Shown: one piece after another, positions 32,383 through 52,915 of the stretch
Layout of the letters: each line of letters begins with the position of its first letter
Numbering within the stretch: the stretch's first letter is position 1
DNA from: Parascardovia denticolens DSM 10105 = JCM 12538
Lineage (GTDB): Bacteria > Actinomycetota > Actinomycetes > Actinomycetales > Bifidobacteriaceae
Reading direction: 5' to 3'
DNA: 64,000 bases
Assembly: GCF_001042675.1 (NCBI RefSeq)
Contig: NZ_AP012333.1
Location: 186,001-250,000 of the forward strand
Position numbers and translations under genes: made by a program
The notes under the pieces: generated by a model
Seen by the model: only the letters and a program-made list of their open reading frames with translations
What the model was told of the DNA's origin: nothing
Database searches by the model: none

Positions 32383-32426
32383 GGCGACAGCAACGAGAAT
32401 CGCCCATGTTATCCTCGCGAAGTAGC

Positions 32427-36715: not shown

Positions 36716-36855
36716 CCATTATCGCTCTGCTCTTTTCTTTCGCGAATTTTCATTTTAGTGTGCCTTTGACAGTGATGTCAATAGTTAGAGGCGTTTTCTA
36801 AGCCTTTTTATTTTCCGAACTCATAACACATTCACACTATAACTATTTCACTCTG

Positions 36856-36870
36856 TCACACAATCACACG
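36856..36870 (+). promoter_or_regulatory. TCACACAATCACACG operator-like site 1
   Basis: The 15-bp word TCACACAATCACACG lies 46 bp before the methyltransferase gene start, surrounded by further CACA-rich words (ATTCACACT, AAGTGTGAAAG). Same word at 37471 and 38298. Confidence 0.6.
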
Positions 36871-36916
36871 TCAACACAAGTGTGAAAGAGCATAGAAGCG
36901 ACAATAGGGAGGAATC

Positions 36917-37468: not shown

Positions 37469-37470
37469 AA

Positions 37471-37485
37471 TCACACAATCACACG
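37471..37485 (+). promoter_or_regulatory. TCACACAATCACACG operator-like site 2
   Basis: Same 15-bp word, within a longer repeat (37465-37495) that is also found at 38292-38322. It lies 26 bp before the parA start. Confidence 0.6.
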
Positions 37486-37511
37486 AAAACACAGGAAAGG
37501 AATCAGCAATC

Positions 37512-38096: not shown

Positions 38097-38284
38097 AAAC
38101 CTACCTCATCCAGCAGAAAAGAACCATCTGCCAATACCAGAGCGCCACCATCAGCGCCGACAGCAGCCAGGAAGCCATCGAGATCTTCAACCAGCTGAGC
38201 GATGAAGACAAACAATGGCAGGAAACCGACCACACCAGAGTCAGCAAACCACACGCCTGGCTCATCAGAAACTACCAGCAATAA
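38093..38284 (+). CDS. Small hypothetical protein between parA and the RHH gene
   Basis: A 63-residue protein from ATG 38093, overlapping the ParA stop as ATGA. It contains QYQSATISADSSQEAIEIFNQ, like short beta-beta-alpha plasmid proteins. No known function; an accessory partition or regulatory role is possible. The left element lacks it. Confidence 0.55.
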   Translation: MKTYLIQQKRTICQYQSATISADSSQEAIEIFNQLSDEDKQWQETDHTRVSKPHAWLIRNYQQ

Positions 38285-38297
38285 CACCAGCGTGAAA

Positions 38298-38312
38298 TCA
38301 CACAATCACACG
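38298..38312 (+). promoter_or_regulatory. TCACACAATCACACG operator-like site 3
   Basis: Third exact copy of the word, 23 bp before the RHH gene. Three consecutive genes thus have the same site, as expected for a regulator acting on its own cluster. Confidence 0.6.
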
Positions 38313-38334
38313 AAAACACAGGGAAAGAACAACC

Positions 38335-38553
38335 ATGAAAAACATAAACCTCATCCCACAATCCACACACCACACCATCCAGGAACTCGCCCACACCACC
38401 CCACAAGCCACGAGCGACGAATGGAAAGCCACCGGGCTGAAAGTCCGTCCAGATACGTGGAAAAGAGCGAAACGATACGCCGCCGACCACGAGATGAAAC
38501 TGCAAAACCTCGTCGACGAAGCACTCCGCCACTACCTGAACCAGATGAACTAG
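38335..38553 (+). CDS. RHH-like DNA-binding protein (paralogue of 11141-11356)
   Basis: A 72-residue protein with TGLKVRPDTWKRAKRYAAD and LVDEALRHYL, the strand-helix-helix pattern of small partition or antitoxin-like repressors. It shares most residues with the left element's copy. Likely binds the TCACACAATCACACG sites (inference from proximity and repetition). Confidence 0.7.
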   Translation: MKNINLIPQSTHHTIQELAHTTPQATSDEWKATGLKVRPDTWKRAKRYAADHEMKLQNLVDEALRHYLNQMN

Positions 38554-38622
38554 CCGCTAGAAACGCTAGTATCGCGGGTATTGTAAGGGGAAATCTATGC
38601 ATGTGAGAGGAAGGATACGGTT

Positions 38623-39465
38623 ATGGAATATCCAACGCACAGACAACCACCCCAGGAATGGGTTCCCCTGCTCGACCAATGGGTCAAATACCTCAGAATC
38701 CGCGGCTGCACACCAGCCACTATCGAAAACTGGTGGTACAACGTCAGCCGTCTCGCTCTCATCCTGAACAAGCCCGTCTACCAAATCAGTGACGAGGACA
38801 TCATCGACTACATGGACAGGGGATTAAGCGCCAATGGAATCAGAAACAACAGGAACGCTTTCAACAGCTTCTTCGACTACCTGATCACCGCTGGCCTACG
38901 GGAAGACAACCCCCTGGCCGCACTGCCGAAAGTCAAAAGAGACAAGCACAAAATGAGGCCCGCCAGCCGTCAACAAGTCGAGAAAGGCCTGCACGACCCG
39001 GACCCCACCGCGCGCCTCATGGTCATGATGCTCGCCGACCTAGGAGTCCGTAGAAGTGAGCTCGCCCAAATTCGCAAAGAGGACCTCATCCAAGAAGACA
39101 AATACACGACCATCATCATCCATGGCAAAGGCGATAAGGACAGGATCCTACCGCTATCCCAACGCCTGCAACAAATCCTCACCGCCATGCCAGACGGCTA
39201 CCTCTTCCCAGGACGCTTCCACGGGCACGTCCACCCTGATACCGTCTACCGGTACGTCAAACGAGCCACAGGAGCCACACCGCACGCCATCCGCCGCCGC
39301 TTCGCCACCGACCTCTGGCATGCGACCGGAGACGCAGTCAAAGTCCAAGGAATGCTAGGCCACGAGAGCCTGGCCACCACGCAAGCCTACATTTACAGCA
39401 CGCAAGACGATCTGAAACAAGCGGTAGACCAGCTGGTCATCTACCGGCAACATCGCCAAGCCTAA
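38623..39465 (+). CDS. Tyrosine recombinase (XerC/D-like integrase)
   Basis: A 280-residue integrase with an N-terminal SAM-like domain (12-95) and catalytic domain (115-275). Catalytic residues visible are Arg143 (GVRRSEL), Lys169 (HGKGDKD), His221 and Arg224 (HAIRRR), His247 (LGHES) and Tyr256 (TQAYIY). It is short and Xer-like, different from the 398-residue integrase of the left element. It lies 2 kb from the left attachment remnant and probably drives integration at tRNA-Lys. Confidence 0.88.
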   Translation: MEYPTHRQPPQEWVPLLDQWVKYLRIRGCTPATIENWWYNVSRLALILNKPVYQISDEDIIDYMDRGLSANGIRNNRNAFNSFFDYLITAGLREDNPLAALPKVKRDKHKMRPASRQQVEKGLHDPDPTARLMVMMLADLGVRRSELAQIRKEDLIQEDKYTTIIIHGKGDKDRILPLSQRLQQILTAMPDGYLFPGRFHGHVHPDTVYRYVKRATGATPHAIRRRFATDLWHATGDAVKVQGMLGHESLATTQAYIYSTQDDLKQAVDQLVIYRQHRQA

Positions 39466-39495
39466 CTACAATCAACAGTGAAGGGAGCACACATC

Positions 39496-39708
39496 ATGGA
39501 AACAATGGAAAAACTCATAGGGTTCATCGCCGGCATCGTCATCCTCATCTGGATATGCGGGAAACTCTTCACAGCGTTCCTGCCCTGGCTCTTCGGCATC
39601 ACCATCGCCCTGATCATCATCAAGACAGGCGTCTGGATGTACAAGAACTCCCGAGAGGACGAGGACCAACCCTACATCGACACCACCGCAGAACCCTACA
39701 ACGAGTAA
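39496..39708 (+). CDS. Small two-helix membrane protein
   Basis: A 70-residue protein with two hydrophobic segments (IGFIAGIVILIWICGKLF and LFGITIALIIIKTGVWMY) and an acidic tail. AAGGGAG precedes ATG 39496. No family recognised. Confidence 0.55.
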   Translation: METMEKLIGFIAGIVILIWICGKLFTAFLPWLFGITIALIIIKTGVWMYKNSREDEDQPYIDTTAEPYNE

Positions 39709-39811
39709 GCGGTTTTACTGTGGAATGATTGCGTTGCATCTACACAAATACATGGCGGTATCCTCTAAAGACATAAGTATTATGGCTTCCCAGTGAGATA
39801 GGATAAAGCTT

Positions 39812-40582
39812 ATGCAGATGTTATTTCTTGACGAGAGCGGAACAGCTCCGAATAAAAATGACGTGAGCAAAAGCCCCTATTTTGTGCTTGGTGGTATCAT
39901 CGTCCCCGAAGCACAATGGAAGTCGCTTCAAAGAAATCTTCGCCAAACAAAAAAGGAATATAACGTTGACGGCGAGATTAAGTGGAGATACTTTATTTAT
40001 CATCCACTGGCAAAAAGAACGACACCTACATCGCATCTAGACCAAAATCAGCTTGATAATCTACGCGATGATTTGTATCAGATCATCGCACGGACTAAGA
40101 GCTTTCGCCTCCTTGCCGCCGTTGTAGATACGAAAGCGTACTACCAACGGCATCCATCAAATGATGCTGAGGATTTATATCATGACGCATTCGAGGTCAT
40201 TTGTGAGAGGTTCCAGTATTACTTACAAGATATGGGTAGGGCAACAACGGGGACCAATATTTATGGCATGATTGTGATTGATGAGAGAAATCAATGGCAG
40301 AATAAGCAACTTGATGAGTTCCATTATCAACTACTGAATAATCATGATGCACATCGTTCAAATTACAATAATCTTGTTGAAGGTCTTTTCATAGCAGCAT
40401 CCCATCATAGTGTTGGAGTCCAATTTGCTGATTTAGTCGCAGGCGCCGTCTACCGGATGGTATCCAAGAATGATGATCGTTTCTATAACAAGATTAAAGA
40501 TAACTTTAGAAAGAGTCCCGAAGGAGATGTAAACGGATATGGAATCGTATCTGTACCTCATAGAGCAATAAGAATCAGATAA
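39812..40582 (+). CDS. DUF3800 domain protein
   Basis: A 256-residue protein with the DUF3800 signature: LFLDESGT at the start, YFVLGGIIVPE, EIKWRYF, a middle VIDERN and a late GVQFADLVAGAVYR. The fold resembles RNase H-like nucleases, with acids at DESG and AD. Such genes are common in mobile elements and defence islands; the activity is unproven. AT-rich relative to neighbours. A structured RNA-like sequence begins seven bases after the stop. Confidence 0.75.
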   Translation: MQMLFLDESGTAPNKNDVSKSPYFVLGGIIVPEAQWKSLQRNLRQTKKEYNVDGEIKWRYFIYHPLAKRTTPTSHLDQNQLDNLRDDLYQIIARTKSFRLLAAVVDTKAYYQRHPSNDAEDLYHDAFEVICERFQYYLQDMGRATTGTNIYGMIVIDERNQWQNKQLDEFHYQLLNNHDAHRSNYNNLVEGLFIAASHHSVGVQFADLVAGAVYRMVSKNDDRFYNKIKDNFRKSPEGDVNGYGIVSVPHRAIRIR

Positions 40583-40588
40583 AAATAG

Positions 40589-40642
40589 ACGCCGTGTCGA
40601 GGGGTGTACCCTCAAACCTGCAATGTGGCGCAGTCACGGCGT
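40589..40642 (+). ncRNA. Candidate three-way-junction RNA after the DUF3800 gene
   Basis: The sequence folds as an 8-bp outer stem (ACGCCGTG 40589-40596 / CACGGCGT 40635-40642) enclosing two hairpins: GAGGG-GTGTA-CCCTC and CTGC-AATGTGGC-GCAG. All nested pairs are canonical. No U tract follows, so it is not a simple terminator. It could be a small RNA, a processing element or a protein-bound structure. Confidence 0.35.
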
Positions 40643-40702
40643 AAGACCTATTGTAATGGTGAGCGATAAAGTTGTCAACTCATCTTTGTACCTAAAGATG
40701 GG

Positions 40703-41851
40703 CTAGTACCAGTGGTGTGTTTGCCAGAATGCCTGCGCGCCGAAGGGATCATGGTAGCGGCTCTTGATGTACTGCAAACCCCACTTGATCTGGGTTAACG
40801 CGTTATCATGCCAATCATCACCGGCGGAAGCCATCTTCGCCCCGGAATGACCAGGGCCTAAAGCCTGGGGAATACCATAAGCGCCACTGGAAGGATTGGT
40901 CGCATCCCACCTCCAACCGGACTCATGCTCCCATACCCATACCAGGGCGTTCCACTGCTTGTCATCATCCCAATCCTTATACGCCTGGCTGATATACCGT
41001 TTGGCCAAGGCTTTCGCCTGCATGGGAGTCGCATGCCTCCCATCGCCGTGATAATCCTTGTCAATATCCATGCTGGCGGCGGAAACCGTGGCGGTACCAG
41101 CCGCCGGACACGCCGGAGAAGAGGCCGTGGATACGGTGCTTTGGGCAGTGGAAACAGCAGGCTTGAGCGCGCCGGTATACCGGTAAGCGGCATTCAGATA
41201 CGCTTTACCCGCTCCGGATGATGGCTCACTGCTGATCTCATGATGCGTCTGGTCCCCAGGAGCACCGTCAATGCCGCCATTCTCCGCGGAATGGGCCGCG
41301 ATGAAACGTCCCTGACCCTCATAAATCTCCGTATGCGTGGCAGCGTTCACCAGGATATCCCCACGCTGCAGCCTGCTGAGGTTGCCACCCCAGGAGAATT
41401 CTTGGAATCCCATCCGTTTCAAAGCCGCATCCATCCCCGTGGTCGCGAAAGGATACGAAGGAACCATCGTGAAGCCCGCGGCTTTCAGCGCGTACCAGAC
41501 CAGGGAGGAGCAATCATAATCAGGATTCCCGTTCCGGCGTGACTGGGAATACCCGTGAGAATCATCGTCGGCGATATCCTCGGCATACTTCACGTACTTC
41601 TCCACCGTCGCATTATCCGCTACCGGCAACGAAGCCGTGCTGGCACCCTGCCCCGGTGCGGGGGCGGAGGAGGAGCCGGAAGAAAAGAGGATAGACAGTA
41701 CGGTCGGCATATCATAACAGCCATTCAGCATGGCCGTCATATCCTGCGGCCCGCACGCGGACAGCAAGCCAACCATCACCGCCAGGCAACCGGCCAGGAA
41801 CATCCGACCCTTCCGGGTGGCAGAATGTTGTGGACGGGGATGCTTAATCAT
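40703..41851 (-). CDS. Lipoprotein peptidoglycan hydrolase (NlpC/P60-like + SLT-like)
   Basis: A 382-residue exported enzyme. Lipobox LLSAC (Cys33) follows a basic start. A CHAP/NlpC-type cysteine peptidase domain begins near residue 83, with nucleophile Cys114 in DYDCSSLVWYAL and a later THTEIYEG for the His. After a Ser/Thr/Ala linker, the C-terminal domain has ALVWVWEHESGW, SSGAYGIPQAL, as in soluble lytic transglycosylases. Such double enzymes open the wall for conjugation machines. The ATG at 41851 overlaps the previous gene. No secretion ATPase is seen nearby. Confidence 0.8.
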   Translation of the reverse strand: MIKHPRPQHSATRKGRMFLAGCLAVMVGLLSACGPQDMTAMLNGCYDMPTVLSILFSSGSSSAPAPGQGASTASLPVADNATVEKYVKYAEDIADDDSHGYSQSRRNGNPDYDCSSLVWYALKAAGFTMVPSYPFATTGMDAALKRMGFQEFSWGGNLSRLQRGDILVNAATHTEIYEGQGRFIAAHSAENGGIDGAPGDQTHHEISSEPSSGAGKAYLNAAYRYTGALKPAVSTAQSTVSTASSPACPAAGTATVSAASMDIDKDYHGDGRHATPMQAKALAKRYISQAYKDWDDDKQWNALVWVWEHESGWRWDATNPSSGAYGIPQALGPGHSGAKMASAGDDWHDNALTQIKWGLQYIKSRYHDPFGAQAFWQTHHWY

Positions 41852-42995
41852 CACTGGTATCCATCAGCCAGGAAGGAGTCTGCCCGCCAACAGCCACTTC
41901 CGTCACCACGCACGGAGCGGACGGCAGCCCATAACCGGTATAGTTCGAACCATGAAAAGACATGACGGACGGGCCCTGCAAGCCTAGCGACCCCTCCGGC
42001 AGATACGATTTCTCCAACCCACCGGACTCCCATAATCTCTTGGTCAGAACCTTGTCATACGGTTTGCCATTCTTATCCGTGAACATTTCCGGATACCCAT
42101 CCTTGGCGTACACGTTATTCGCCTGCATGGCGGCAGGGCAGTACGTCGTCACATGCCACAAGCCGTCATCCATAGGGATGGTCACCACGTTAAAATAACT
42201 CTGCAGGATCAGCTGCGGATCCACGGTGGACGGCAAAGACAACCCCTGCGGGGTGGGGAAATTGAACTTCTGCTTCGCCCCATAGTAGAAATATCGGGGC
42301 TGCACACTGATCAGACTGGTATCGTTCTCCGTCTCAGTAGTATTCCGGTTAAGCCCATCAGCGGAACACAGATCGGAATCAGGATAGGGCAAGCCGGTGA
42401 CCACTCCCTCCAGAGCCGCGTCATGATCCGTACACAGCGTGTTCGGAGCGAACTTGCGCTGCGCCCACCAGTAGCGCGGCGCGTTCGGCATGTAATACGA
42501 ATCCTCATGACCGGGCACGGCATGGAAATTCTCGCGCATACGAGCCGCCCACACCGCGTCCGAGGTCTTACTGTCGATAAGGTCATTGACCGTCTTCAAC
42601 GCCACATAGCCGGAAGAAAACGTGTCATGCGGCAGCGTGATATACCAGCTGCTCGGAACGCCACCGCGATCAGCCTTCTTGATATACTCCTCCCCTTTCG
42701 ATCCCAACACGAACCGTTGGGACGACCATGCGCCTGGCAAAGGCAGTCCTGCCTGCCGTAACCCATTCCACTGCGATGCTTCCTCCGCCTGTTTCCTGCC
42801 CTTGTGGGTCGGGGTGGAAGAAGCGGTCAGACCAGCGGGCAAAGACTCCTGCCTATCCCGCCAGGAATCCCAGGCACCATAAGCGCCACCCACGATAACC
42901 GCGATGACGAGCAAAGCGATCATCGCCAAACGCGACTTGACCGGATGCTTCTTCCGGTTCTCAACAGCTTCATCACTATAATCAAATAACGCCAT
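41844..42995 (-). CDS. Membrane-anchored extracellular hypothetical protein
   Basis: A 383-residue protein with one transmembrane helix (about 25-43, IALLVIAVIVGGAYGAW) and a large external domain containing several Cys and aromatic residues (YYMPNAPRYWWAQRKF). No domain recognised. It is coupled to the hydrolase gene and the coiled-coil gene upstream, suggesting a cell-surface complex of the element. ATG 42995 is preferred over the GTG before it. Confidence 0.6.
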   Translation of the reverse strand: MALFDYSDEAVENRKKHPVKSRLAMIALLVIAVIVGGAYGAWDSWRDRQESLPAGLTASSTPTHKGRKQAEEASQWNGLRQAGLPLPGAWSSQRFVLGSKGEEYIKKADRGGVPSSWYITLPHDTFSSGYVALKTVNDLIDSKTSDAVWAARMRENFHAVPGHEDSYYMPNAPRYWWAQRKFAPNTLCTDHDAALEGVVTGLPYPDSDLCSADGLNRNTTETENDTSLISVQPRYFYYGAKQKFNFPTPQGLSLPSTVDPQLILQSYFNVVTIPMDDGLWHVTTYCPAAMQANNVYAKDGYPEMFTDKNGKPYDKVLTKRLWESGGLEKSYLPEGSLGLQGPSVMSFHGSNYTGYGLPSAPCVVTEVAVGGQTPSWLMDTSDD

Positions 42996-43016
42996 CACAC
43001 GCCCCCCTCTTCCAGG

Positions 43017-43358
43017 TCACTCATCCACTCCGGAGGACGCATCCCCCTCATCTTCCGGCGCTTGGGACAGCGTATTATCATCTTCAACACTATCAGCGTG
43101 CAAAACATTTCGAGCAGCCTGTTGGACAGATTCATCCAACAGACTCAACTCAGAGCGATCCACGCCCACCTGCTTCGCCCGCCGTTTCAAATCAGATACC
43201 TGCTGCCTCTTATCAGCCAACTGATCAGACAGCAAAATAACCTGGCTGACAGCCTCCATATACTCAGTCTCGAAATCCAGCCGAGCCTGCTGGCGAGCTA
43301 TCTTCAACCGGGCCGCCTGCCTGCCGATCTGCCGCACCATACGATCCGTATCACCCAT
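43017..43358 (-). CDS. Coiled-coil hypothetical protein
   Basis: A 113-residue protein, helical and coiled-coil from about 5 to 80 (AARLKIARQQARLDFETEYM, LADKRQQVSDLKRRAKQV), with an acidic tail. GGAAGG stands nine bases before ATG 43358. First gene of the three-gene minus-strand operon. Confidence 0.6.
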   Translation of the reverse strand: MGDTDRMVRQIGRQAARLKIARQQARLDFETEYMEAVSQVILLSDQLADKRQQVSDLKRRAKQVGVDRSELSLLDESVQQAARNVLHADSVEDDNTLSQAPEDEGDASSGVDE

Positions 43359-43430
43359 GACTTGCATCCTTCCATGAGAAAACTGTTTTCCAGTGACTCT
43401 CCCATCCTCGCAGAAAACAAGCAGGCCGCC

Positions 43431-43496
43431 GGGTGGAAATGGATCCTCACTTCGCTCTTTTCCACCCGACGGTCATGGGGAAACCTGACATCATGG
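43431..43496. repeat. GGGTGGAA/TTCCACCC hairpin, oriT-like copy
   Basis: Arms GGGTGGAA (43431-43438) and TTCCACCC (43460-43467) with a 21-nt spacer, followed by GACGGTCATGGGGAAACCTGA. The same arms form the hairpin in front of the relaxase at 50538-50559. A related block lies at 45554-45595. Confidence 0.5.
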
Positions 43497-43529
43497 GAAG
43501 CGTAAACCATTCAAGCTAAGGAGTGCATT

Positions 43530-43862
43530 ATGCCCAGCATGTTCACATGGATTATCGCCAACCAAAACCTCGCCTACGCAGGAGTCTTCATCTTCCTCGC
43601 CATCAGCCTCGCCCTGACCCTCCTCGGCCACCAGCTGTGGGTGACCGCCGACCAGGATGACGACGAGACCCATAGCGCGCAAGCGCGCAAGCCCGCCAGC
43701 ATCATCTGCTACATTATCGCCGCGGTGTCCGCCGTCCTCGCCCTCTACTGCCTCGATGGTGTACTCGCCACCAGTTTTCACGCCACTTTCATCGCCTGCA
43801 TCATCATTGATGTCATCCTCATCCTTCTCATCCCCATCATCACCCGATTCACTCACAACTAA
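43530..43862 (+). CDS. Three-helix membrane protein
   Basis: A 110-residue protein with hydrophobic segments at about 14-33, 55-72 and 84-104 (IACIIIDVILILLIPII). The loop between the first two is acidic (TADQDDDETHS). CTAAGGAG precedes the ATG. No family recognised; an element surface protein is likely. Confidence 0.55.
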   Translation: MPSMFTWIIANQNLAYAGVFIFLAISLALTLLGHQLWVTADQDDDETHSAQARKPASIICYIIAAVSAVLALYCLDGVLATSFHATFIACIIIDVILILLIPIITRFTHN

Positions 43863-43887
43863 TCAGAACTAAGAAAACAAGCAGATT

Positions 43888-43918
43888 AGGGGCTCCTCAT
43901 CGGAGCCCCTATTTTATT
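43888..43918 (+). terminator. Rho-independent terminator
   Basis: AGGGGCTCC (43888-43896), loop TCATC, GGAGCCCCT (43902-43910), then ATTTTATT. Terminates the small membrane-protein gene. Confidence 0.85.
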
Positions 43919-44051
43919 GTCCAGGAAAATGCAGAGAACAGTCGATTAAGTCAAAGCCCCGCACTGATAAGACACTTCCAGGGGTTACAAGCCTATGATC
44001 GGTACATCAGATCATAGTGGACGAATCATCCCAACCATATGCTCATCACCC

Positions 44052-44609
44052 TCAGCCTTTCCTGCTTAGAAGCCTATAGATGGTGGTGCGGCTTACACCA
44101 TAGAGTTTCCCGATCTGACCAACTGAAAGATCGCCTTGACCATACAGTTCACGGATCTTCTTGATCTTCCCCGGCGTGAGCTTGCGAGGCCGGCCGCCCT
44201 TGCGCCCCCGCGCTCGTGCGGCAACTAATCCCGCATTCGTGCGTTCCACGATCAAGTCACGCTCAAACTGAGCGAGACTAGCAAAAATGTTGAAGACGAG
44301 AATCCCGCCGGTCGTGGTCGTATCAATGCTTTCGGTCAAGGAGATGAATTGCACCTGCTTCCTGCGGAAACCATCGACGAGCGTAACCAGGTCCTGCACG
44401 CTACGGCCCAGCCGATCCAACTTCCAGACAACAACGGCGTCGCCTTCCCTCAACGCGGCGATCATACGGTCAAGCTCCGGTCTGCTTGACTTCGTCCCCG
44501 ATACACCCCGATCAGCATAGATCCTCTCACAGCCAGCCTTCTCTAGTGCGTCTGTTTGAAGAACGATATTCTGATCAGAGGTACTGACCCTGGCATACCC
44601 GATTCTCAT
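44052..44609 (-). CDS. Serine recombinase (resolvase/invertase)
   Basis: A 185-residue small serine recombinase. The nucleophile Ser9 is in GYARVSTSDQN; later come RPELDRMIAALREGD, WKLDRLGRS, and the E-helix LAQFERDLIVERT. The C-terminal HTH is VGQIGKLYGVSRTTIYRLL. It could resolve dimers or invert DNA between res-like sites. ATG 44609 is chosen over a TTG three codons earlier. Palindromes lie upstream at 44713-44746 and 44963-44988. Confidence 0.9.
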   Translation of the reverse strand: MRIGYARVSTSDQNIVLQTDALEKAGCERIYADRGVSGTKSSRPELDRMIAALREGDAVVVWKLDRLGRSVQDLVTLVDGFRRKQVQFISLTESIDTTTTGGILVFNIFASLAQFERDLIVERTNAGLVAARARGRKGGRPRKLTPGKIKKIRELYGQGDLSVGQIGKLYGVSRTTIYRLLSRKG

Positions 44610-44712
44610 AACCCTCAAGTGTACTAAAAGACAGAGTCGATAGGCTTATGAGACATAGAAAAAGAGACGGGTTATGGAACAGGATTTTCACGCACCATTG
44701 AAGAGGAAAAAG

Positions 44713-44746
44713 GGTTGTGTCATAAACGGACGATTATGACACAACC
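44713..44746. repeat. 12-bp inverted repeat upstream of the resolvase gene
   Basis: Perfect arms GGTTGTGTCATA (44713-44724) and TATGACACAACC (44735-44746), 10-nt spacer. It may be a recombinase binding site, an element end remnant or an operator. Confidence 0.55.
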
Positions 44747-44962
44747 GCACCATTGACATCCGAGCGCAAAGGAAGGAGGGGGATCCCCGAACGGCGATCC
44801 CCCTCCCGCTGTCTGCATCTCCATCACAGCATCCTCCCCAGCAGCCAAATCAGAAACCGTTCTCCATCAGGGCAGTCCGTTCATGGAAGAGTGGTGATCC
44901 CATCGTCGCAGGCTAGCCCGCCGCCGCCATACCACGAGACTCGGGCGCTATCTCTTAACAGA

Positions 44963-44988
44963 TCTGCCACTGACATGTCAGTGGCAGA
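44963..44988. repeat. Perfect 26-bp palindrome
   Basis: The half-site is TCTGCCACTGACA, with its exact reverse complement directly following (no spacer). It lies 91 bp before a small gene and 350 bp before the resolvase start. The gap 44610-45078 has no gene. A dimeric regulator or recombinase site is likely. Confidence 0.6.
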
Positions 44989-45078
44989 CCGGCCATGATA
45001 GAAGCGCCCTCGCCTCGGAATGTCGACGCACAAGCATCCTGCGCTTCAGGCCTCACCACTTCAAGAAAGGAAGAAAAC

Positions 45079-45432
45079 ATGTACACTCCACAACAACTCA
45101 CGACCATGAGGAACGACATCAACGAGAGGATGCTCCATGCCGCCGAACAGACGGCAGACGACTACCAGGGCGGAGGATACCATGACATCGAATGGGGACG
45201 CATACAGGAAAACCTGGCCGAGGAAATCTTCACCCGCTACACCATCCCCAGCGTTCATACCGTCTACTACATCCTCATGAACTGGGCGGAAACCCATCCC
45301 AGCCTGTATAAGCACGTCTGCGAAATCCTCAACCACTCCACCCGCCCCGAACAGAGACTCGACCACCTGGCCAGCAGGCTGGAAGACGAGTCGGACGCCG
45401 ACATCTGGTACTACACCGAATGGGACGAATAA
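45079..45432 (+). CDS. Hypothetical acidic protein
   Basis: A 117-residue protein after an AAAGGAAG site. Helical and acidic (QQLTTMRNDINERMLHAAEQ, later IWYYTEWDE). No domain known. It may be an element regulator or DNA-mimic type inhibitor; the acidity alone is weak support. Confidence 0.5.
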   Translation: MYTPQQLTTMRNDINERMLHAAEQTADDYQGGGYHDIEWGRIQENLAEEIFTRYTIPSVHTVYYILMNWAETHPSLYKHVCEILNHSTRPEQRLDHLASRLEDESDADIWYYTEWDE

Positions 45433-45553
45433 CCCACCCAAACAGAGCAGGGATACTCACCAGTCTCTCCCCAAACCACACCAACAAAATAGGAGCCGAG
45501 GAGAGACCGGTGAAGACAATAGGACAACCACCCATCGCAATCGGATTACGATA

Positions 45554-45595
45554 TGGAAAGTTCCACCCGACGGTCACGGGAAATCCTGTCATGAT
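45554..45595 (+). repeat. TTCCACCCGACGG block, second copy
   Basis: TTCCACCCGACGGTCACGGGAAA-type sequence starting at 45561, matching the 43460 block over about 30 bp with few differences. Here the left arm is only TGGAA. It is located before the double-RHH gene pair. Confidence 0.5.
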
Positions 45596-45645
45596 GAAAA
45601 CGAAGCTATCTAAATACTGGCCATGCGCTAAAGAAAGGAATCATC

Positions 45646-46011
45646 ATGGATGATCACAAAGAAGTCGTCGTTATTACGACCCGATTGACTCGTCAGGATA
45701 AGAAAGAGCTTGACCGTAAGGCTCGAGTGGAAGGAATCAATAACAGCCACTACATGCGAGAAGCTATCAGCCGATATGTCCAAGAATACGGGCTCTGCCA
45801 ATTGATCGAAGCCAGCAAGCAGGAACGTGCTGAGTATCCGCGTAAGGAAAGCGATTATTTCAAAGGGCAGAAGGACATTCCACAGATTTCCGTCAAGCTT
45901 GATGCCGAATGTTTCGGCCAGCTCTGCCAAGTCTGCACTCATCTGCAAGCGTCCGCTGCCCACGCCTTACGCGTATGCATCCTTGAAGCACTTCACCCAG
46001 CCGAAGATTAA
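45646..46011 (+). CDS. Double ribbon-helix-helix-like DNA-binding protein A
   Basis: A 121-residue protein with two RHH-like units: VVVITTRLTRQDKKELDRK followed by NSHYMREAISRYV, and PQISVKLDAECFGQL followed by AAHALRVCILEAL. Two units in one chain would form an intramolecular dimer. AAAGGAA precedes the ATG. It is paralogous to the next gene. Likely an element transcription regulator or relaxosome accessory. Confidence 0.55.
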   Translation: MDDHKEVVVITTRLTRQDKKELDRKARVEGINNSHYMREAISRYVQEYGLCQLIEASKQERAEYPRKESDYFKGQKDIPQISVKLDAECFGQLCQVCTHLQASAAHALRVCILEALHPAED

Positions 46012-46040
46012 ACGAACAGACGATTAAGGAAGGAATCATC

Positions 46041-46457
46041 ATGCCACGTCCCCATACAGTTATCACTATCACCACTCGTCTTTCCGACCCCGCCTACATC
46101 ATGCTTCTTCATTTGTCCTTGAAACGACATGAGAGCATCGCATACTACCTACGGGGCGCCATCGACCTGTATGTAAGGGAAACGATAGGGGAATGGGTCA
46201 TCCCCGCCACTGAAGAACAGCGATACAGCTACGCCATCAAACACGATTCCGAGCTCATCTCGAATTCACCGTTGAGGAATGTGTCCGTGCGTCTGACCCA
46301 AGAGACCCTGACCAATCTCGATAGGGTCTGCGCCTATCATTACCGAGGACGTTCCTGGGCCTTGCGCGCCTGTATCATGTACCGTCTGCGCTCCGAATAC
46401 CCCTTCTATGACACCTGGATCCAAGGCGGCGCGCACGAAGCGGCCATCATGGACTGA
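46041..46457 (+). CDS. Double ribbon-helix-helix-like DNA-binding protein B
   Basis: A 138-residue paralogue of the preceding gene: VITITTRLSDPAYIMLLHL with IAYYLRGAIDLYV, then NVSVRLTQETLTNLDRV with SWALRACIMYRL. GGAAGG precedes the ATG. The pair probably arose by tandem duplication and is co-transcribed. Confidence 0.55.
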   Translation: MPRPHTVITITTRLSDPAYIMLLHLSLKRHESIAYYLRGAIDLYVRETIGEWVIPATEEQRYSYAIKHDSELISNSPLRNVSVRLTQETLTNLDRVCAYHYRGRSWALRACIMYRLRSEYPFYDTWIQGGAHEAAIMD

Positions 46458-46825
46458 AAACCGCGACCCTCCCAGTGAATCATCGAAATACATGTGTTTG
46501 AATCACTGAAATCATCTCAACGCAATCAAAACGGAACGAACAAAACAAACGAAAGAGAACAACCGCAATCATTCAAATCCCGCTAATGCATGTCGACAGC
46601 TGAACAGCCCCTGAAAAGAGCCATGTGTCTCAGGAAAACAATAATTCCATTCAGGGGTAGCAAGCTAGACGTTTTGTATCCACAAAACACGCCGCCAACC
46701 CACACCCCTCCAACGCTTCTTTACGCCGGAAACCGGCGGAAAAGAGGAGGGGAGTGGAAGAACCCGAGTGCCAAAGGCGTGTGTAATATTGACATTTAAG
46801 TATTAGCATTATAGGAAAAGACAAA
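46458..46825 (+). promoter_or_regulatory. Intergenic region and promoter of the restriction-modification gene
   Basis: No gene is visible. A small CGCCGG/CCGGCG repeat lies near 46725-46739. TTGACA near 46790 and TATAGG 15 bases later form a plausible promoter 10-15 bases before ATG 46826. Confidence 0.4.
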
Positions 46826-48694
46826 ATGAAAAGAAGCAAAATTCAGCAGACTATAGGAGTGGAGTATCTGACCTCAAATATAGAAAACGATGAGTTCAGC
46901 TATAACAAAGCTCTGGCGAACGTCGGCAAGAACATTAACGATTACCGTACTATGCGGGGGGGGGGCAGGCTCAGTGAGTTCTTAGACCTTCGCTTCGAAA
47001 GCGATAGGCTTGCCATATTGATTGAGACTAAAAACAGCTTTAATAAATGGGACAAAGAGGAAATTGAAGAACAGCTACAGAACTACGTAAAGTGGGAAAA
47101 AATCTATAGCGACAAAAAAATTGTTGCTATCTTAGCTGAGACGGAAGGCGATGAAGTCTGGACATGGTACGGCCAGTCAGTAATCATCGATGAAAAGCAT
47201 AAAGTACATGGTCAGAATAAGATACTTAGCTTCAAAGAGTATGAAGATTTATGTTTTGGGAAAGTCAACGACCGTATTAAAGTCGTAGACTCAATCAAAC
47301 AGCTTAACGTCATGCTCCATTCAGATGGGATTAATGAACACCTGCGAAGCCAGTTCGTTGGTACCTGCTTACTCGCTCTGCAAAACGGATTAGTGTACGA
47401 GGATATCAAGGAAAGGCCTAATCCTTCAACAGGCAAAAGCATGCCTAAAACAGAAGTTGTGATTAAGGGTATCCAGCAAATCTTAGAGGGGCTACTCGCA
47501 AAAAGTGGAAGCATTAATAGAGCAAGCAAACTGGCCATTCTAAATAATAAAGTCCTTGGCGACCAAGATGTAACAAGTTTGTCTTATATAGAGTTGAGAA
47601 CACTTCTCGAATACATCGACTCAAACGTCGTTCCCTACATCAACAACAAGAACACCGCAGGACAAGATCTCCTCAATCTATTCTTCACAACATTCAACAA
47701 ATATGTAGGAAAATCAGATAAAAACCAGGCATTCACCCCAGATCATATTTGCGATTTCATGTGTAAAGCAATTGGCGTGAGCAAGAATTCCAGAGTCCTT
47801 GATCCTTGCTGCGGCAGCGGGGCATTCCTGGTTCGCGCGATGGTAGATGCAATGGATGATTGCGATACGGAAGAGGAACGGGAAAAAGTAAAACGTGAAC
47901 AGATCTACGGAATCGAATATGAAGATGGAGCGTACGGATTATCCTCAACGAACATGCTCATTCATAGCGATGGAAACTCTAACATCATCCAAGACTCCAT
48001 GTTTAACAAAGCGAAATGGATTGAAAGCAACGATATTAACACAGTACTCATGAATCCTCCATACAATGCAACGAAGAAGTTTTGTGACCCAGCATATGTC
48101 AAACAATGGGGAAAGACTAAAAAAGAAGACCCCTCAAAAGGGATCCACTTTGTTGAATACATTGCAAAACATGTTAACCCTACGGCAAAAATGGCTGTCC
48201 TATTGCCGATGCAAGCCGCTATTGGGACAAGCAATGAAATTAAAGACTTCAAAAAGAAAATGTTAGCAAATTATACCTTGGATGCGGTATTTAGCCTCCC
48301 CAACGAGATGTTCTACCCAGGAGCATCAGCGGTGGCCTGCTGCATGATTTTCGATTTAAGCCAAAAACATGAAAAAGCAAATCGAGAAACATTCTTTGGC
48401 TACTTCAAAGATGATAAATTCATCAAACGAAAAGGGCTGGGCAGAGTGGAACAGACAGATTCCCAAGGGAACAGTCTTTGGGCACAGACTGAAGAGCAAT
48501 GGCTGAATCTATATAGGAATCGGAAAACAGTAGCCGGACTTTCTGTCACACATAAAGTCACTTACAACGATGAATGGTTGGCAGAAGCATATATGGAAAC
48601 AGACTATTCAAAACTTAACGAAAAGAATTTCGAGCAAACTATACGCGATTATTATGCTTATCTCATCCGGAATGGAGTTGATACCAATGCTTGA
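46826..48694 (+). CDS. BcgI-like restriction-modification subunit (PD-(D/E)XK nuclease + N6-adenine methylase)
   Basis: A 622-residue protein. The N-terminal part has FESDRLAILIETK (Glu67-x-Lys69), a PD-(D/E)XK-like nuclease core. The rest is an N6-adenine methylase: FTPDHICDFM, SAM motif VLDPCCGSGAF (about 324-334) and catalytic NPPY (about 409). Cleavage and methylation in one chain plus a separate specificity protein is the BcgI (type IIB) arrangement; BcgI A is about 640 residues. A G10 run (46956-46965) lies at codons 44-47. One base more or less meets a stop within about ten codons. The AT-rich codon use points to transfer. Confidence 0.75.
   Translation: MKRSKIQQTIGVEYLTSNIENDEFSYNKALANVGKNINDYRTMRGGGRLSEFLDLRFESDRLAILIETKNSFNKWDKEEIEEQLQNYVKWEKIYSDKKIVAILAETEGDEVWTWYGQSVIIDEKHKVHGQNKILSFKEYEDLCFGKVNDRIKVVDSIKQLNVMLHSDGINEHLRSQFVGTCLLALQNGLVYEDIKERPNPSTGKSMPKTEVVIKGIQQILEGLLAKSGSINRASKLAILNNKVLGDQDVTSLSYIELRTLLEYIDSNVVPYINNKNTAGQDLLNLFFTTFNKYVGKSDKNQAFTPDHICDFMCKAIGVSKNSRVLDPCCGSGAFLVRAMVDAMDDCDTEEEREKVKREQIYGIEYEDGAYGLSSTNMLIHSDGNSNIIQDSMFNKAKWIESNDINTVLMNPPYNATKKFCDPAYVKQWGKTKKEDPSKGIHFVEYIAKHVNPTAKMAVLLPMQAAIGTSNEIKDFKKKMLANYTLDAVFSLPNEMFYPGASAVACCMIFDLSQKHEKANRETFFGYFKDDKFIKRKGLGRVEQTDSQGNSLWAQTEEQWLNLYRNRKTVAGLSVTHKVTYNDEWLAEAYMETDYSKLNEKNFEQTIRDYYAYLIRNGVDTNA
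46956..46965 (+). repeat. G10 homopolymer inside the restriction-modification gene
   Basis: Ten G encode the Arg-Gly-Gly-Gly stretch after Met43. With 11 G the frame reaches TGA after CAGGCTCAG; with 9 G it stops at TAG after GTGAGTTCT. The tract is in frame in this sequence, so the gene is on. Confidence 0.85.
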
Positions 48695-49727
48695 TACATC
48701 TCAATGGAAGCGGGTGCTTCTAAAAGATATTTGCACAATATCCATGGGAAATAAACTGGACTTTTCCAAAATGTCAACTGACTCGCCCACAGTATTATTC
48801 GTCGGCAGAACAGGGTCAAACAATGGAGTCATGGGACGTGTAGACTTACTCGACGATCTCGAACCATATCCAGGTGGAGATATGACTATTGCTTTAGGCG
48901 GGACTTTAGGCCACACCTGTGTGCAAACAGAGCCCTTCTACACATCGCAAAATGTCGCAGTGCTACATCTCTCTGACAAAATATCTACTCAAGCTAAACT
49001 ATTTCTCTCGACAATAATTATGGAAGAATGTAAGTATCGGTTCGTGGCTTTTGGAAGAGAATTAAACACACACATTAGAAGAGACTTTTCAATCAAACTT
49101 CCCACCACAAACTCAGGAAAACCTGATTGGCAATGGATGGACACCTACATGCAAACTATCGCAGATCAAGAGAGAGAGGGCAAAAGCCCTCTTGACGAAT
49201 CATTAATGACGCAAAATTTAAGTGCCAATTCAGAGCTGCCGAATATCAGTAAGTGGAAATGGTTCAAGCTTGGCGGTGAAAAAGGATTGTTCGAAATTAA
49301 AAAAGGGAAACGATTGACTTCAGAAGATCAAACTAAAGGAGATACGCCATATATCGGAGCAATAGACTCTAATAATGGTATTGCCAATCGAATTGGACAA
49401 AGACCTATGCATGAAGGTAATACGATATCGTTAAGCTACAATGGGTCTATCGGAGAAGCTTTTTATCAACCGCGACCCTTCTGGGCGACCGATGATGTAA
49501 ATGTCCTATATCTGAGAAAGAAGACCGAGCACTTCAACAAATATTCGGCTTTGTTTCTTTGCACAATTCTTAAACAGGAAAAATATCGATACTCCTACGG
49601 TCGAAAATGGACAGTAGATAATATGGAAAATACTTTAGTGAAATTGCCTGCATTGCCCTCGGGAATTCCAAATTGGGAATATATGGCGACATATATAGAA
49701 TCTTTACCATATGGAGATAGGATTTAA
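48687..49727 (+). CDS. Specificity (S) subunit, BcgI B/HsdS-like
   Basis: A 346-residue protein with two half-repeats, each starting with a W(K).. strand and a loop of the TRD type: QWKRVLLKDICTISMGNKL and KWKWFKLGGEKGLFEIKKGKR. Two target-recognition domains read a bipartite site. ATG 48687 overlaps the stop of the R-M gene by eight bases. The size is close to BcgI B (about 340). The target sequence cannot be predicted by eye. Confidence 0.8.
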   Translation: MLDTSQWKRVLLKDICTISMGNKLDFSKMSTDSPTVLFVGRTGSNNGVMGRVDLLDDLEPYPGGDMTIALGGTLGHTCVQTEPFYTSQNVAVLHLSDKISTQAKLFLSTIIMEECKYRFVAFGRELNTHIRRDFSIKLPTTNSGKPDWQWMDTYMQTIADQEREGKSPLDESLMTQNLSANSELPNISKWKWFKLGGEKGLFEIKKGKRLTSEDQTKGDTPYIGAIDSNNGIANRIGQRPMHEGNTISLSYNGSIGEAFYQPRPFWATDDVNVLYLRKKTEHFNKYSALFLCTILKQEKYRYSYGRKWTVDNMENTLVKLPALPSGIPNWEYMATYIESLPYGDRI

Positions 49728-49754
49728 AAAAAATATTTCAATACGACAAATTGT

Positions 49755-49958
49755 TCATAAAATGTCAATCATGATATTGAAGTCAATCTGCTCAAGTTGA
49801 TTGACGAACTTTTCCAGATACGTTGTCAGCTTCCCATCATTAACGAACAGTGAACGATCCTGGGTGAAGCGCCCCTGCTTATCTTTCAAGTATCTCAAAC
49901 TAAAACCTGTCGAGTCAAGCTGTGCGACCGCGTGTACGAAGCACCAACTCTCAGACAT
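49755..49958 (-). CDS. Small hypothetical protein
   Basis: A 67-residue protein (SLRYLKDKQGRF, YLEKFVNQLEQIDFN). It overlaps the end of the next-upstream small gene by eight bases. No domain known; possibly an element accessory or regulatory protein. Confidence 0.4.
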   Translation of the reverse strand: MSESWCFVHAVAQLDSTGFSLRYLKDKQGRFTQDRSLFVNDGKLTTYLEKFVNQLEQIDFNIMIDIL

Positions 49959-50076
49959 ACAGTAGGAACTCTTTCAAAGTCGGATCGTCTATACCCTCCA
50001 TATGCGACCTCATCACCTCGTCCGGCTTATACTTCGGGAAGATATGTTCGGTAAAGATAGTGATAGTGTCTGTCAT
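49951..50076 (-). CDS. Very small hypothetical protein (41 aa)
   Basis: ATG 50076 follows an AAGGA site; the frame ends at TGA 49953-49951 (MTDTITIFTEHIFPKYKPDE..., 41 residues). The overlap with the next gene (ATG TCT GA) and the ribosome binding site support translation. Function unknown. Confidence 0.4.
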   Translation of the reverse strand: MTDTITIFTEHIFPKYKPDEVMRSHMEGIDDPTLKEFLLYV

Positions 50077-50152
50077 CTGAAGGCATCCTTCATAACCAAG
50101 CGAACAAAACGAGGCAGACTTTAATCAAGCCTAACCTAAAATCAAATGATAG

Positions 50153-50503
50153 CTATTTTCCCGGAATAAGAGAATCAGCTTTCTCCAGAAGTCTCTCGAT
50201 GGTAGGAATATCGACTTTCCCGCCCATGTTCACCCGATGCGCTATCTGATTAATATTGACTCCGATGCGGTGGATCTCCGCCCGGATCGCTTGGAGCGTG
50301 GCGTTCTTCGCATCCTCCTGCTCGGTGTGGATGGTCTGCTCAATGAGAGCACGGGCTATCAGATACTTGCTCACACTGACGCCGGCTTCACGAGCTTTCC
50401 GTCGTATGTTTGAAAGCTGGTGTTCGGTCACGCGGATATGGATCTCTTTATTCCGCGGAGTATTGTGAGAGTGTTTTTGGTTGTGTGTTCCTCTGATTTC
50501 CAT
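50153..50503 (-). CDS. MobC-like relaxosome accessory protein
   Basis: A 116-residue protein. RNKEIHIRVTEHQLSNIRRKA is the RHH strand and first helix. IGVNINQIAHRVN is the MobC hallmark. The C-terminal helix (IPTIERLLEKADSL) completes the family pattern. It is divergent from the relaxase gene, with the hairpin between them. ATG 50503 is preferred; an ATG four codons upstream is possible. Confidence 0.8.
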   Translation of the reverse strand: MEIRGTHNQKHSHNTPRNKEIHIRVTEHQLSNIRRKAREAGVSVSKYLIARALIEQTIHTEQEDAKNATLQAIRAEIHRIGVNINQIAHRVNMGGKVDIPTIERLLEKADSLIPGK

Positions 50504-50529
50504 ACCTATCAGCATCGCAGAAAATGGCT

Positions 50530-50580
50530 TTCCTCCTGGGTGGAAGGAGGTTTCCACCCGGTTGCTGTGTCTCTTGCTCG
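50530..50580. other. Candidate oriT between mobC and the relaxase gene
   Basis: GGGTGGAA (50538-50545) and TTCCACCC (50552-50559) form an 8-bp stem with a 6-nt loop, followed by GGTTGCTGTGTCTC. A hairpin with a nick site on its 3' side between divergent mobC and relaxase genes is the usual oriT form. The nick position is not determined. Confidence 0.55.
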
Positions 50581-50584
50581 CATG

Positions 50585-51904
50585 ATGGTTAGTATGATTC
50601 CGAACATCACCAGAGGCAGCAGCCCCGCAGGACTCTTGAGGTATCTTTTCGGCCCGGGACGCGCCAACGAGCATCATCACCAGCATGTGATCGCCGCCAG
50701 CAGCGACCTTACCGGCCAGTTCGACCTGGACGGGAAGCCGGCGGACAGCTTCCGGAAGATCGAGAGACGATTCGACAGAAACTACCTGAGACTGAAACGG
50801 GAGGGGGAGGATAATCCTCCCGACCGGCGAGGCAAACGCAACCCGGAGAAACAGAGCGGCAAGGACAGGATCTGGCACTGCAGCCTGGCCATTAAAGCCG
50901 GCCATGACATCCTCACCGACCAACAGTGGGTTAGCCTAGCGGAAGACTACCTGAAACGCATGGGCCTGGACGAGGCGACATGGATAGCCGTCCGGCACGG
51001 TTTATCCAAGAACGGCAACGACCATATCCACCTCATGGTCAACCTCGCCGGGAAAGAAGGCTGGTACAACCCCTACCACGACCGGATCCAAGCACAAGAA
51101 GCCTGCCGAAGCATGGAAGAAGCCTACCCCTATCTGGAAGCCCTGGACTACACCGCCAACCGGCAGGTCATCCGCTTCCAACAAGCAGAATACTGGGAAT
51201 GGGCCCAATGGAAAGCCCGCCACGACTGGGATGAGACCCACCCTGGATGCGACTGGAGCACGCTCACCACCAGGCAGCGGCAAAACCTGGCCAAACAGGT
51301 CAAAGCGGATACCATGCCCAAGCAGAAACTCGGCCTCCTCATAGCCGCCCTGGCCAAAGACTCACACAGCGAGGACGAGTTCATCCGCAGAATACGCAGG
51401 GAAGGACTCATGATCGACCCCCGACTGAAGAAAGGCGTCACGAAAGGAGACTTCACTAATGCCAGCCAGGTCGTCGGCTACACCATCACATGGAAAAGCG
51501 CAGACGGATGGCGACAACGATTCAACGCCTACGACCTCGGCAAAGAACTCACCCTCAAACAGCTGCGCCGCCACTGGGCCACCGATCCGCGCAGCACACG
51601 CCTGGCCGCGTTGGAATGGCAAGCCAGCATGAACCACCACAGACCCGTCATGAGACAAGGCGCGGAAAAACAAGCCGACAACCTTACCGTACATGACATG
51701 TGCCGCATCATCGACCAAGCCTTCACCATCCTCCAAGACACCCGCTTCAATCTCGACGACCCACACGCAGTCAACCAGGCTGTCCGCCGGTTCGACCAGC
51801 TCTACAACTCCTACGGAATCACCTGGAACAGTATCCAAGACAAGGGAGATGAAAAGAGGTTCGTCCTATCACAGCAAGAAAAGACGGGTTCTCGTCTCCG
51901 CTAA
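50585..51904 (+). CDS. Relaxase / mobilization protein
   Basis: A 439-residue relaxase. Motif I region MIPNITRGSSPAGLLRYLFG starts the protein with a candidate Tyr in LLRYLFG. The metal-binding motif is NDHIHLMVNL (HxHxxxN). This is the short actinobacterial type, different from the HVDRAHLHNH relaxase of the left element. The C-terminal 180 residues are helical. Several ATGs lie close together (50582, 50585, 50594); the longer upstream frame runs through the oriT. It probably mobilises this element with help from another conjugative plasmid. Confidence 0.8.
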   Translation: MVSMIPNITRGSSPAGLLRYLFGPGRANEHHHQHVIAASSDLTGQFDLDGKPADSFRKIERRFDRNYLRLKREGEDNPPDRRGKRNPEKQSGKDRIWHCSLAIKAGHDILTDQQWVSLAEDYLKRMGLDEATWIAVRHGLSKNGNDHIHLMVNLAGKEGWYNPYHDRIQAQEACRSMEEAYPYLEALDYTANRQVIRFQQAEYWEWAQWKARHDWDETHPGCDWSTLTTRQRQNLAKQVKADTMPKQKLGLLIAALAKDSHSEDEFIRRIRREGLMIDPRLKKGVTKGDFTNASQVVGYTITWKSADGWRQRFNAYDLGKELTLKQLRRHWATDPRSTRLAALEWQASMNHHRPVMRQGAEKQADNLTVHDMCRIIDQAFTILQDTRFNLDDPHAVNQAVRRFDQLYNSYGITWNSIQDKGDEKRFVLSQQEKTGSRLR

Positions 51905-51969
51905 ATCAAAGAGAGTAGATAAAATAAACGGTGAGAGGGGATGAAAATATTGGTATCAAAGAAAGGAAA

Positions 51970-52761
51970 ATGGTGAACGGTCTGAGCTTAGAGCAAGAAG
52001 CCGTGCTGACTATCTGCCGAGATAACCACGATAGAGTCTTCAATGAGCCAAACTCGTTTGAATATTCTGCGCTAGATGACTTAAAAACAGCTAATATGGT
52101 TGACGTCAAAGATTCATCCTTGGGTAGTTTTTTGCGCTTTCATGGAATGCTTCCAGCTGGTTTGGAACACTATAATAAAGCCAGGAAGGAACGGAAGCAG
52201 TTCAAGAGTGTCAGTGATGCTGCTGATGAACTCATGATGAAACTTGCCGTTGAAGATAGACATAAGCAAGAGTCTCAAGAGAATGGAGAAACTCCCTTTG
52301 TAAGAACTAACGAAGCGGATCCGCGATATTACCGGGAACTTTCTAACGCAGGCTTAATCGATGTGCGGTGGGCAGACAACAGACCTTACCTTGTACAAGT
52401 TACGGATGACGGTCGGCACTATGCGGAAGGAGACTTTATGAATCAGCACCCAAACACTTCCTTGCCAAATATAATTATCAACAACAACAATCAAGCAAAC
52501 TCTAATGCTAATGCAGCCATTGAGGGAACCACAATTAATGCGGCAATCTCCGCTCTTATGCAGCTCAGCAATGTGAGCGAGAAAGACAAGAGTGCAGCAG
52601 AATCAGCGGCTAAAGAACTCGACACAGCAGCAAAGAATAAAGATAAAAAATCATTTGCTGAGAAACTTGAGACCCTTGCTGGCATTTTAAAGAACTCAAC
52701 AGAAACTGCTACGACACTGCTACCTTTTGTGGCAAATGCAATCCATCTACTATTCAGCTAA
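51970..52761 (+). CDS. Hypothetical protein, possible defence effector
   Basis: A 263-residue protein starting after AAAGGAAA. The N-terminal part is helical. A winged-helix-like segment (NAGLIDVRWADNRPYLVQVTDDG) follows near 130-155. An Asn-rich linker leads to a charged helix (KDKKSFAEKLETLAGIL) and a hydrophobic C-terminus (LLPFVANAIHLLF). A sensor followed by a membrane-active tail would fit an abortive-infection protein, but I cannot name a family. AT-rich. Confidence 0.45.
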   Translation: MVNGLSLEQEAVLTICRDNHDRVFNEPNSFEYSALDDLKTANMVDVKDSSLGSFLRFHGMLPAGLEHYNKARKERKQFKSVSDAADELMMKLAVEDRHKQESQENGETPFVRTNEADPRYYRELSNAGLIDVRWADNRPYLVQVTDDGRHYAEGDFMNQHPNTSLPNIIINNNNQANSNANAAIEGTTINAAISALMQLSNVSEKDKSAAESAAKELDTAAKNKDKKSFAEKLETLAGILKNSTETATTLLPFVANAIHLLFS

Positions 52762-52841
52762 CCTATTTTTCGCTAAACTCTCTGGTGTCATGCACCCGAC
52801 AAAGGCCGCATGGCACCGGAAACAAAAGTAAAAAAGAAGCG

Positions 52842-52915
52842 TGCCCCCACAGAGACTCGAACTCTGGACCCACGACTTAAAAGGACGCTGCTCTAACCAA
52901 CTGAGCTACGGGGGC
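52842..52915 (-). tRNA. tRNA-Lys (TTT)
   Basis: A complete 74-base cloverleaf on the minus strand. Acceptor GCCCCCG / TGGGGGC with discriminator A, D-arm GCTC..GAGC, anticodon loop CTTTTAA (anticodon TTT), T-arm CAGAG TTCGAGT CTCTG. The anticodon stem has one U-U mismatch (positions 30-40). No CCA is encoded. Its 3' end faces the second element, and its AAGTCGTGGGT segment is repeated in the displaced remnant at 36667-36715. Confidence 0.85.

What the first reader, a model, noticed from the sequence alone, without database searches (positions are those of the whole stretch)
46941..46980. G10 tract makes the BcgI-like restriction-modification gene a switch
Ten G within codons 44-47 of a combined nuclease/methylase gene; both +1 and -1 lengths meet stops within about ten codons. 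Loss switches off cutting and methylation together. In phasevarions, methylase switching changes global expression.
Basis: partly seen in the sequence, partly recalled or inferred. Interest (0 to 1): 0.8.

Follow-up and report, generated by a model that had tools for sequence, protein, structure and literature searches.

The report
On/off switch in a restriction enzyme
A run of ten Gs near the start of a DNA-cutting-and-marking enzyme gene in the dental-caries bacterium Parascardovia denticolens very probably lets cells randomly switch this defence on and off, because a distantly related copy of the gene in another genus of the family has gained a G-run at the same spot and is caught in the off position.

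Summary
The G10 tract is real (46956-46965, codons 44-47 of a 622-aa gene) and not expected by chance: 0.00006-0.0005 in this 41%-GC gene under its own composition, about 0.01 at most under the window's. G10 keeps the frame; G9 and G11 stop at 52 and 50 residues, before the nuclease and methylase motifs. The gene and its S-subunit neighbour form a BcgI-like (Type IIB) system: N-terminal PD-(D/E)XK nuclease resembling BsaXI and BpuSI, N6-adenine methylase, two-TRD S subunit. It is cargo of a probable 16-kb mobile element. About 85 homologues from other families lack the tract. One of only three other full-length homologues in the family (another genus, about 50% identity) has G11 at the equivalent codon, its frame broken only there (OFF). 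The two genes are not sisters (AU p = 3e-5), so the tract very probably arose twice at one site. This is strong comparative evidence for a slipped-strand ON/OFF switch of the whole enzyme. Not shown: length variation within a population, enzyme activity, methylation, any phasevarion. Precedents: C. jejuni Cj0031, H. pylori BcgI-like S-subunit tract, B. breve pilus G-tracts. The switch claim is well supported; the phasevarion claim remains speculation.

The parts
46956..46965 (+). G10 tract, codons 44-47 of the A (RM) subunit; G10 is the in-frame (ON) length
46826..48694 (+). A (RM) subunit, 622 aa: N-terminal nuclease plus N6-adenine methyltransferase
   Evidence: Pfam N6_Mtase 2e-32; PADLOC Type IIG 5e-59; homologues start at the same Met
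46826..47245 (+). PD-(D/E)XK-type nuclease domain, residues 1-140; invariant E20, E23, D54, E67, K69, Q83
47696..48544 (+). methyltransferase domain, residues 291-573, with DPCCGSG (326-332) and NPPY (410-413)
46975..46977 (+). TGA that ends the frame when the tract is G11
46983..46985 (+). TAG that ends the frame when the tract is G9
48687..49727 (+). S subunit (two Methylase_S/TRD stretches); start overlaps the A gene by 8 nt (an upstream in-frame ATG at 48672 is possible)
36658..52915 (.). probable integrated mobile element carrying the R-M genes: tRNA-Lys at 52841-52915 and an 80% copy of its 3' end at 36658-36703; tyrosine integrase 38623-39465, resolvase 44052-44618, mobilisation-type RHH protein 45646-46011, relaxase 50420-51904
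   Evidence: the boundaries are inferred

Best explanation
A slipped-strand (contingency) switch of a whole Type IIB restriction-modification enzyme. Replication slippage adds or removes Gs. With G10 (as sequenced) the A subunit is full length and, with S, cuts unmodified and methylates self DNA. With G9 or G11 translation stops at residue 50-52, before the nuclease residues D54/E67/K69 and the methylase, so cutting and marking vanish together; the overlapping S gene is probably translated less too. OFF cells should survive because the nuclease is lost with the methylase; they become open to foreign DNA and phage while old methyl marks dilute. Shown: the tract, the reading frames, the domain anatomy, absence in relatives outside the family, and an out-of-frame tract at the same codon in another genus. 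Inferred: slippage rate, enzyme activity, ON/OFF subpopulations, fitness effect.
For: Frame arithmetic and rarity of the tract. No G run longer than 4 at this site in about 85 homologues from other families. G003, another genus of the family, has G11 at the same codon, out of frame, with the rest of the A frame open and an intact S gene. The two tract genes are not one clade and their flanks are only 52-57% identical in DNA, so the tract was very probably gained twice. It encodes the least confident loop of an otherwise well modelled nuclease domain, between the conserved N-terminal Glu residues and the catalytic Asp. No restart with a Shine-Dalgarno-like motif. G-tract slippage is measured in this family in B. 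breve (PMC9187656). The published genome of matching length is a Sanger assembly, so the length call is fairly good (PMC4432353).
Against: Only one tract length is seen for this species; no reads or other strains could be examined. The OFF homologue comes from a draft assembly (83% complete), so its length could be an assembly error or the gene could be decaying. G10 slipped much less than G11 in B. breve. Two of the four full-length family homologues have no tract. Enzyme activity is untested.
Confidence: 0.8

Rival explanations
1. A phasevarion: the selected role of the switch is to change expression of many genes through gain and loss of N6-adenine methylation.
For: ON/OFF switching of the Type IIG enzyme Cj0031 alters methylation and gene expression in C. 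jejuni (PMC4889913). A bipartite-site methylase would mark many chromosomal sites (general knowledge).
Against: No methylome or expression data here. The nuclease residues are invariant among the relatives, so the family keeps cutting, which fits defence; the enzyme is mobile-element cargo.
Confidence: 0.2
2. A fortuitous homopolymer: the tract slips like any other and simply breaks the gene now and then; there is no selected switch.
For: One length only in the data; G runs of 9 or more elsewhere in this genome and its relatives are mostly intergenic, so G runs also arise without a coding role.
Against: Two independent gains at the same codon of distant homologues, against none in about 85 homologues of other families; position upstream of every catalytic motif.
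Confidence: 0.13
3. Slippage acts at transcription or translation rather than in DNA, so the tract tunes the amount of enzyme in every cell instead of making ON and OFF cells.
For: G10-14 runs sit early in transposase genes of the sister species G002, a place where some IS elements use frameshifting to limit expression (general knowledge).
Against: In B. breve, DNA-level length mixtures were measured and DNA-locked in-frame variants produced pili (PMC9187656). Transcript slippage is mainly known for A/T runs (general knowledge).
Confidence: 0.05

Closest known systems
Cj0031 (Type IIG R-M), Campylobacter jejuni NCTC11168 (PMC4889913)
   Same: Nuclease and methylase in one reading frame with a poly-G tract (G9 ON, G10 OFF); both activities predicted to be lost together; most other alleles lack the tract.
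   Different: Single 1243-aa chain with its own recognition domain; tract mid-gene (nt 2573 of 3732). Here there is a separate S subunit, and the tract lies at nt 131, before the nuclease active site.
[quoted passage not shown]
   Same: Type IIB RM + S gene pair with a G tract (13 or 14 G) causing frameshift.
   Different: There the tract is in the S gene, so the RM polypeptide is still made; here it is near the start of the RM gene.
Sortase-dependent pilus G-tracts of Bifidobacterium breve (PMC9187656)
   Same: Same bacterial family, same poly-G slippage mechanism, measured at G10-G12.
   Different: Controls surface pili, not a restriction-modification enzyme.
BcgI and BsaXI (Type IIB R-M; PMC3874165, PMC11997821)
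   Same: RM and S subunits; N-terminal PD-(D/E)XK nuclease; N6-adenine methylase; S subunit with two TRDs.
   Different: No tract-based switch reported in the passages read; recognition site and cleavage geometry are unknown for this enzyme.

Membership tests
BcgI-like (Type IIB) R-M system | RM subunit with nuclease and N6-adenine (gamma) methylase in one chain | tested here: met
   Methylase: Pfam 2e-32 and motifs DPCCGSG/NPPY. Nuclease: invariant D54, E67, K69 and best structural matches BpuSI Z 7.8 and BsaXI Z 7.6; the Z scores are modest.
BcgI-like (Type IIB) R-M system | Separate S subunit with two recognition domains | tested here: met
   Overlapping gene 48687-49727 with two Methylase_S stretches and Type II specificity hits.
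BcgI-like (Type IIB) R-M system | Cuts on both sides of a bipartite site; (RM)2S assembly | not testable with these tools
   Needs protein biochemistry.
Slipped-strand phase-variable gene | Long homopolymer in the coding sequence whose unit changes break the frame early | tested here: met
   G10; G9 and G11 give 52 and 50 aa.
Slipped-strand phase-variable gene | Out-of-frame but otherwise intact allele or homologue observed | tested here: met
   G003 homologue with G11, about 50% identity. This is a homologue in another genus, not an allele of the same species.
Slipped-strand phase-variable gene | Length variation within one species or population | not testable with these tools
   One genome per species held; no reads.
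Phasevarion | Methylation-dependent change in expression of several genes between ON and OFF cells | not testable with these tools
   No methylome or transcriptome data.

The most novel reading that the evidence does not exclude
In Bifidobacteriaceae, acquired BcgI-like systems come under poly-G control: the tract has arisen independently at one loop codon just upstream of the nuclease active site. In P. denticolens a second probable defence gene (an AAA_13, PDC-S06/PrrC-like ATPase at C1:96354-99028, G9, currently out of frame) and a Cna_B-domain surface protein carry similar G tracts, so single cells would differ at random in two defences and one adhesin-like protein.
Probability: 0.4. Interest if true: 0.65.

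Novelty: new variant of a known kind. Interest (0 to 1): 0.52.

Why it matters
Phase-variable restriction has been studied mostly in Gram-negative pathogens (general knowledge). A convergent G tract at one codon of a Type IIB enzyme in actinobacteria of this family suggests bet-hedging of phage and foreign-DNA defence there too. It also poses a clean question: BcgI itself barely methylates unmarked DNA, so how does a cell survive switching such an enzyme from OFF to ON? In practice, methylomes and transformation efficiencies of these bacteria may differ from colony to colony.

Tried and rejected
(1) Internal restart making a nuclease-free methylase when OFF: no Shine-Dalgarno-like motif before any in-frame start downstream of the tract up to codon 300. 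(2) Tract inherited from one tract-bearing ancestor of just these two genes, or copied recently between them: joint clade rejected, flanking DNA only 52-57% identical. (3) Nuclease domain by Pfam: no useful match; by sequence profile against PDB: none; by Foldseek alone: no hit with E <= 0.001; VIA-align put BpuSI and BsaXI first. (4) Phage-borne or other copies: no hit for the tract's upstream flank in viral contigs; plasmid and phage homologues are all below 60% identity. (5) Wider search of the order: no further close full-length homologue. (6) Relatives of the AAA_13 gene, to see whether its tract is conserved: none close in the family or order, none in viral contigs, only partial 26%-identity plasmid hits. 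(7) A 5'-end swap with its junction near the tract: residues 1-40 match L056 (78%) better than the gene's own clade (60% or less), but clade members L034 and L035 also match outside rows best there, so retained ancestry is not excluded.

Full report
Observation. The window contains ten consecutive Gs at 46956-46965, inside codons 44-47 of an open frame at 46826-48694. Changing only the tract length in a script gives 622 aa at G10, 52 aa at G9 and 50 aa at G11; G7 and G13 are also open. The expected number of G10 runs in the gene is 0.00006-0.0005 (models of the gene) or 0.002-0.012 (models of the window).

What the gene is. The C-terminal part matches N-6 DNA methylases (Pfam E 2e-32, residues 291-573) with DPCCGSG and NPPY motifs. 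The PADLOC best hit is a Type IIG restriction enzyme-methyltransferase (5e-59). The first 150 residues match no Pfam family, but residues 1-140 model confidently (pLDDT 90.8). Their best structural matches are the nuclease domains of BpuSI (Z 7.8) and of the Type IIB enzyme BsaXI (Z 7.6, 118 residues, 19% identity). These Z scores are modest, but E20, E23, D54, E67, K69 and Q83 are invariant in 45 homologues, which fits the D...ExK pattern of PD-(D/E)XK nucleases; BsaXI needs E73, D90, E105 and K107 (PMC11997821). The next gene overlaps by 8 nt and encodes an S subunit with two recognition domains. Together this is a BcgI-like, Type IIB pair (definitions: PMC3874165, PMC4081073). Two-sided cleavage and the recognition site cannot be tested here.

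Where it is. The genome is 1,890,857 bp in one contig, exactly the length published for Parascardovia denticolens JCM 12538T, which was sequenced by Sanger reads with an error rate under 1 in 10,000 (PMC4432353); the organism is inferred from that match. The R-M genes are about 41% GC in a 56% GC window. They lie in a probable 16-kb element between tRNA-Lys and a partial copy of its 3' end, with a tyrosine integrase, a resolvase, a mobilisation-type protein and a relaxase.

Relatives. About 80 homologues (45-73% identical) from genome and viral contigs of many phyla have no G run longer than 4 in the aligned stretch. The 189 genomes held for the family were searched. Four have a full-length homologue: this one, G177 (57%, no tract), G047 (48%, no tract) and G003 (about 50%). 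The G003 gene has G11 directly after Lys-Lys-Arg(C), 7-8 residues before the Asp that matches D54, and there the frame breaks: 64 aa as assembled, about 608 aa at G9 or G12. The rest of its A frame is open and its S gene is intact. It lies between what look like ordinary chromosomal genes in the 20 kb read.

Convergence. On a tree of the part downstream of the tract, the window gene lies in a 19-row clade with Bacillota, Bacteroidota and Fibrobacterota rows that have no tract (SH-aLRT 100), and G003's gene lies far away. Forcing the two tract genes together costs 130 log-likelihood units (p-AU 2.6e-5). DNA next to the tract is only 52-57% identical between them. So the tract very probably arose twice, in one family, at one loop. 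In the model this loop (residues 41-50) is the least confident stretch of the nuclease domain (block mean pLDDT 64 against 82-97 elsewhere), a place that should accept a few glycines more or less when the frame is kept.

Mechanism. Best explanation: slipped-strand switching. One state gives the full enzyme; the other two give 50-52-residue stubs, removing nuclease and methylase together. No restart site with a Shine-Dalgarno-like motif is seen downstream up to codon 300. Losing both at once avoids self-cutting in OFF cells, as argued for C. jejuni Cj0031 (PMC4889913). The reverse switch is the interesting step: BcgI methylates unmarked sites 100-fold less efficiently than half-marked ones (PMC4081073), so a cell turning ON may face self-restriction. 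That point rests on analogy with BcgI.

Comparison with known cases. Poly-G slippage has been measured in this family, in B. breve pili, with G11 and G12 together in cultures (PMC9187656). H. pylori BcgI-like systems carry a G13/G14 tract, in the S gene (PMC3936762). C. jejuni Cj0031 is a single-chain enzyme with a mid-gene G9/G10 tract (PMC4889913). Two literature searches combining Bifidobacterium with phase variation and restriction-modification did not show this case. The mechanism is known; the placement (RM subunit of a Type IIB pair, before the active site, gained twice) is a new variant.

Limits. No read data, no second strain, no methylome. The OFF homologue comes from a draft assembly. 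The phasevarion claim is untested and I give it 0.2.

Noticed in passing
window 32427-32438, minus-strand gene about 29884-32525: G12 (C12 on the coding strand) between an upstream start and the signal peptide of a collagen-binding/Cna_B-domain surface protein; out of frame at the present length. Resembles the B. breve pilus G-tracts.
   Followed up: partly
L085:3355-6029 (G000:C1:96354-99028), outside the window: AAA_13 ATPase gene (Pfam 1e-48; PADLOC PDC-S06, weak PrrC) with a G9 tract 37 codons after its first ATG, out of frame at the present length: possibly a second phase-variable defence gene.
   Followed up: partly
L141 and L143 (G002, same genus): Two copies of one IS in the same genome, identical for 328 nt upstream, carry G11A7 and G14A5 at the same place, so homopolymers do vary between copies in this genus.
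   Followed up: partly
G002 genome: Many more G runs of 9 or more, up to G14, than in G000 or G001; of those examined most are intergenic or in IS copies.
   Followed up: partly
window 46826-46955: Residues 1-40 of the A subunit resemble another branch of the family (L056, 78%) more than the gene's own clade (60% or less), with the change near the tract; 5'-end replacement or retained ancestry.
   Followed up: partly
L064:5563, L070:5511, L071:5558: C8-C9 runs about 440-490 nt upstream of the R-M gene in three Bacteroidales, near the start of a small membrane-protein-like frame.
   Followed up: no
window 36658-36703 and 52833-52878: 46-nt direct repeat (80% identical) of a tRNA-Lys 3' end, probably the attachment sites of the mobile element.
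   Followed up: partly
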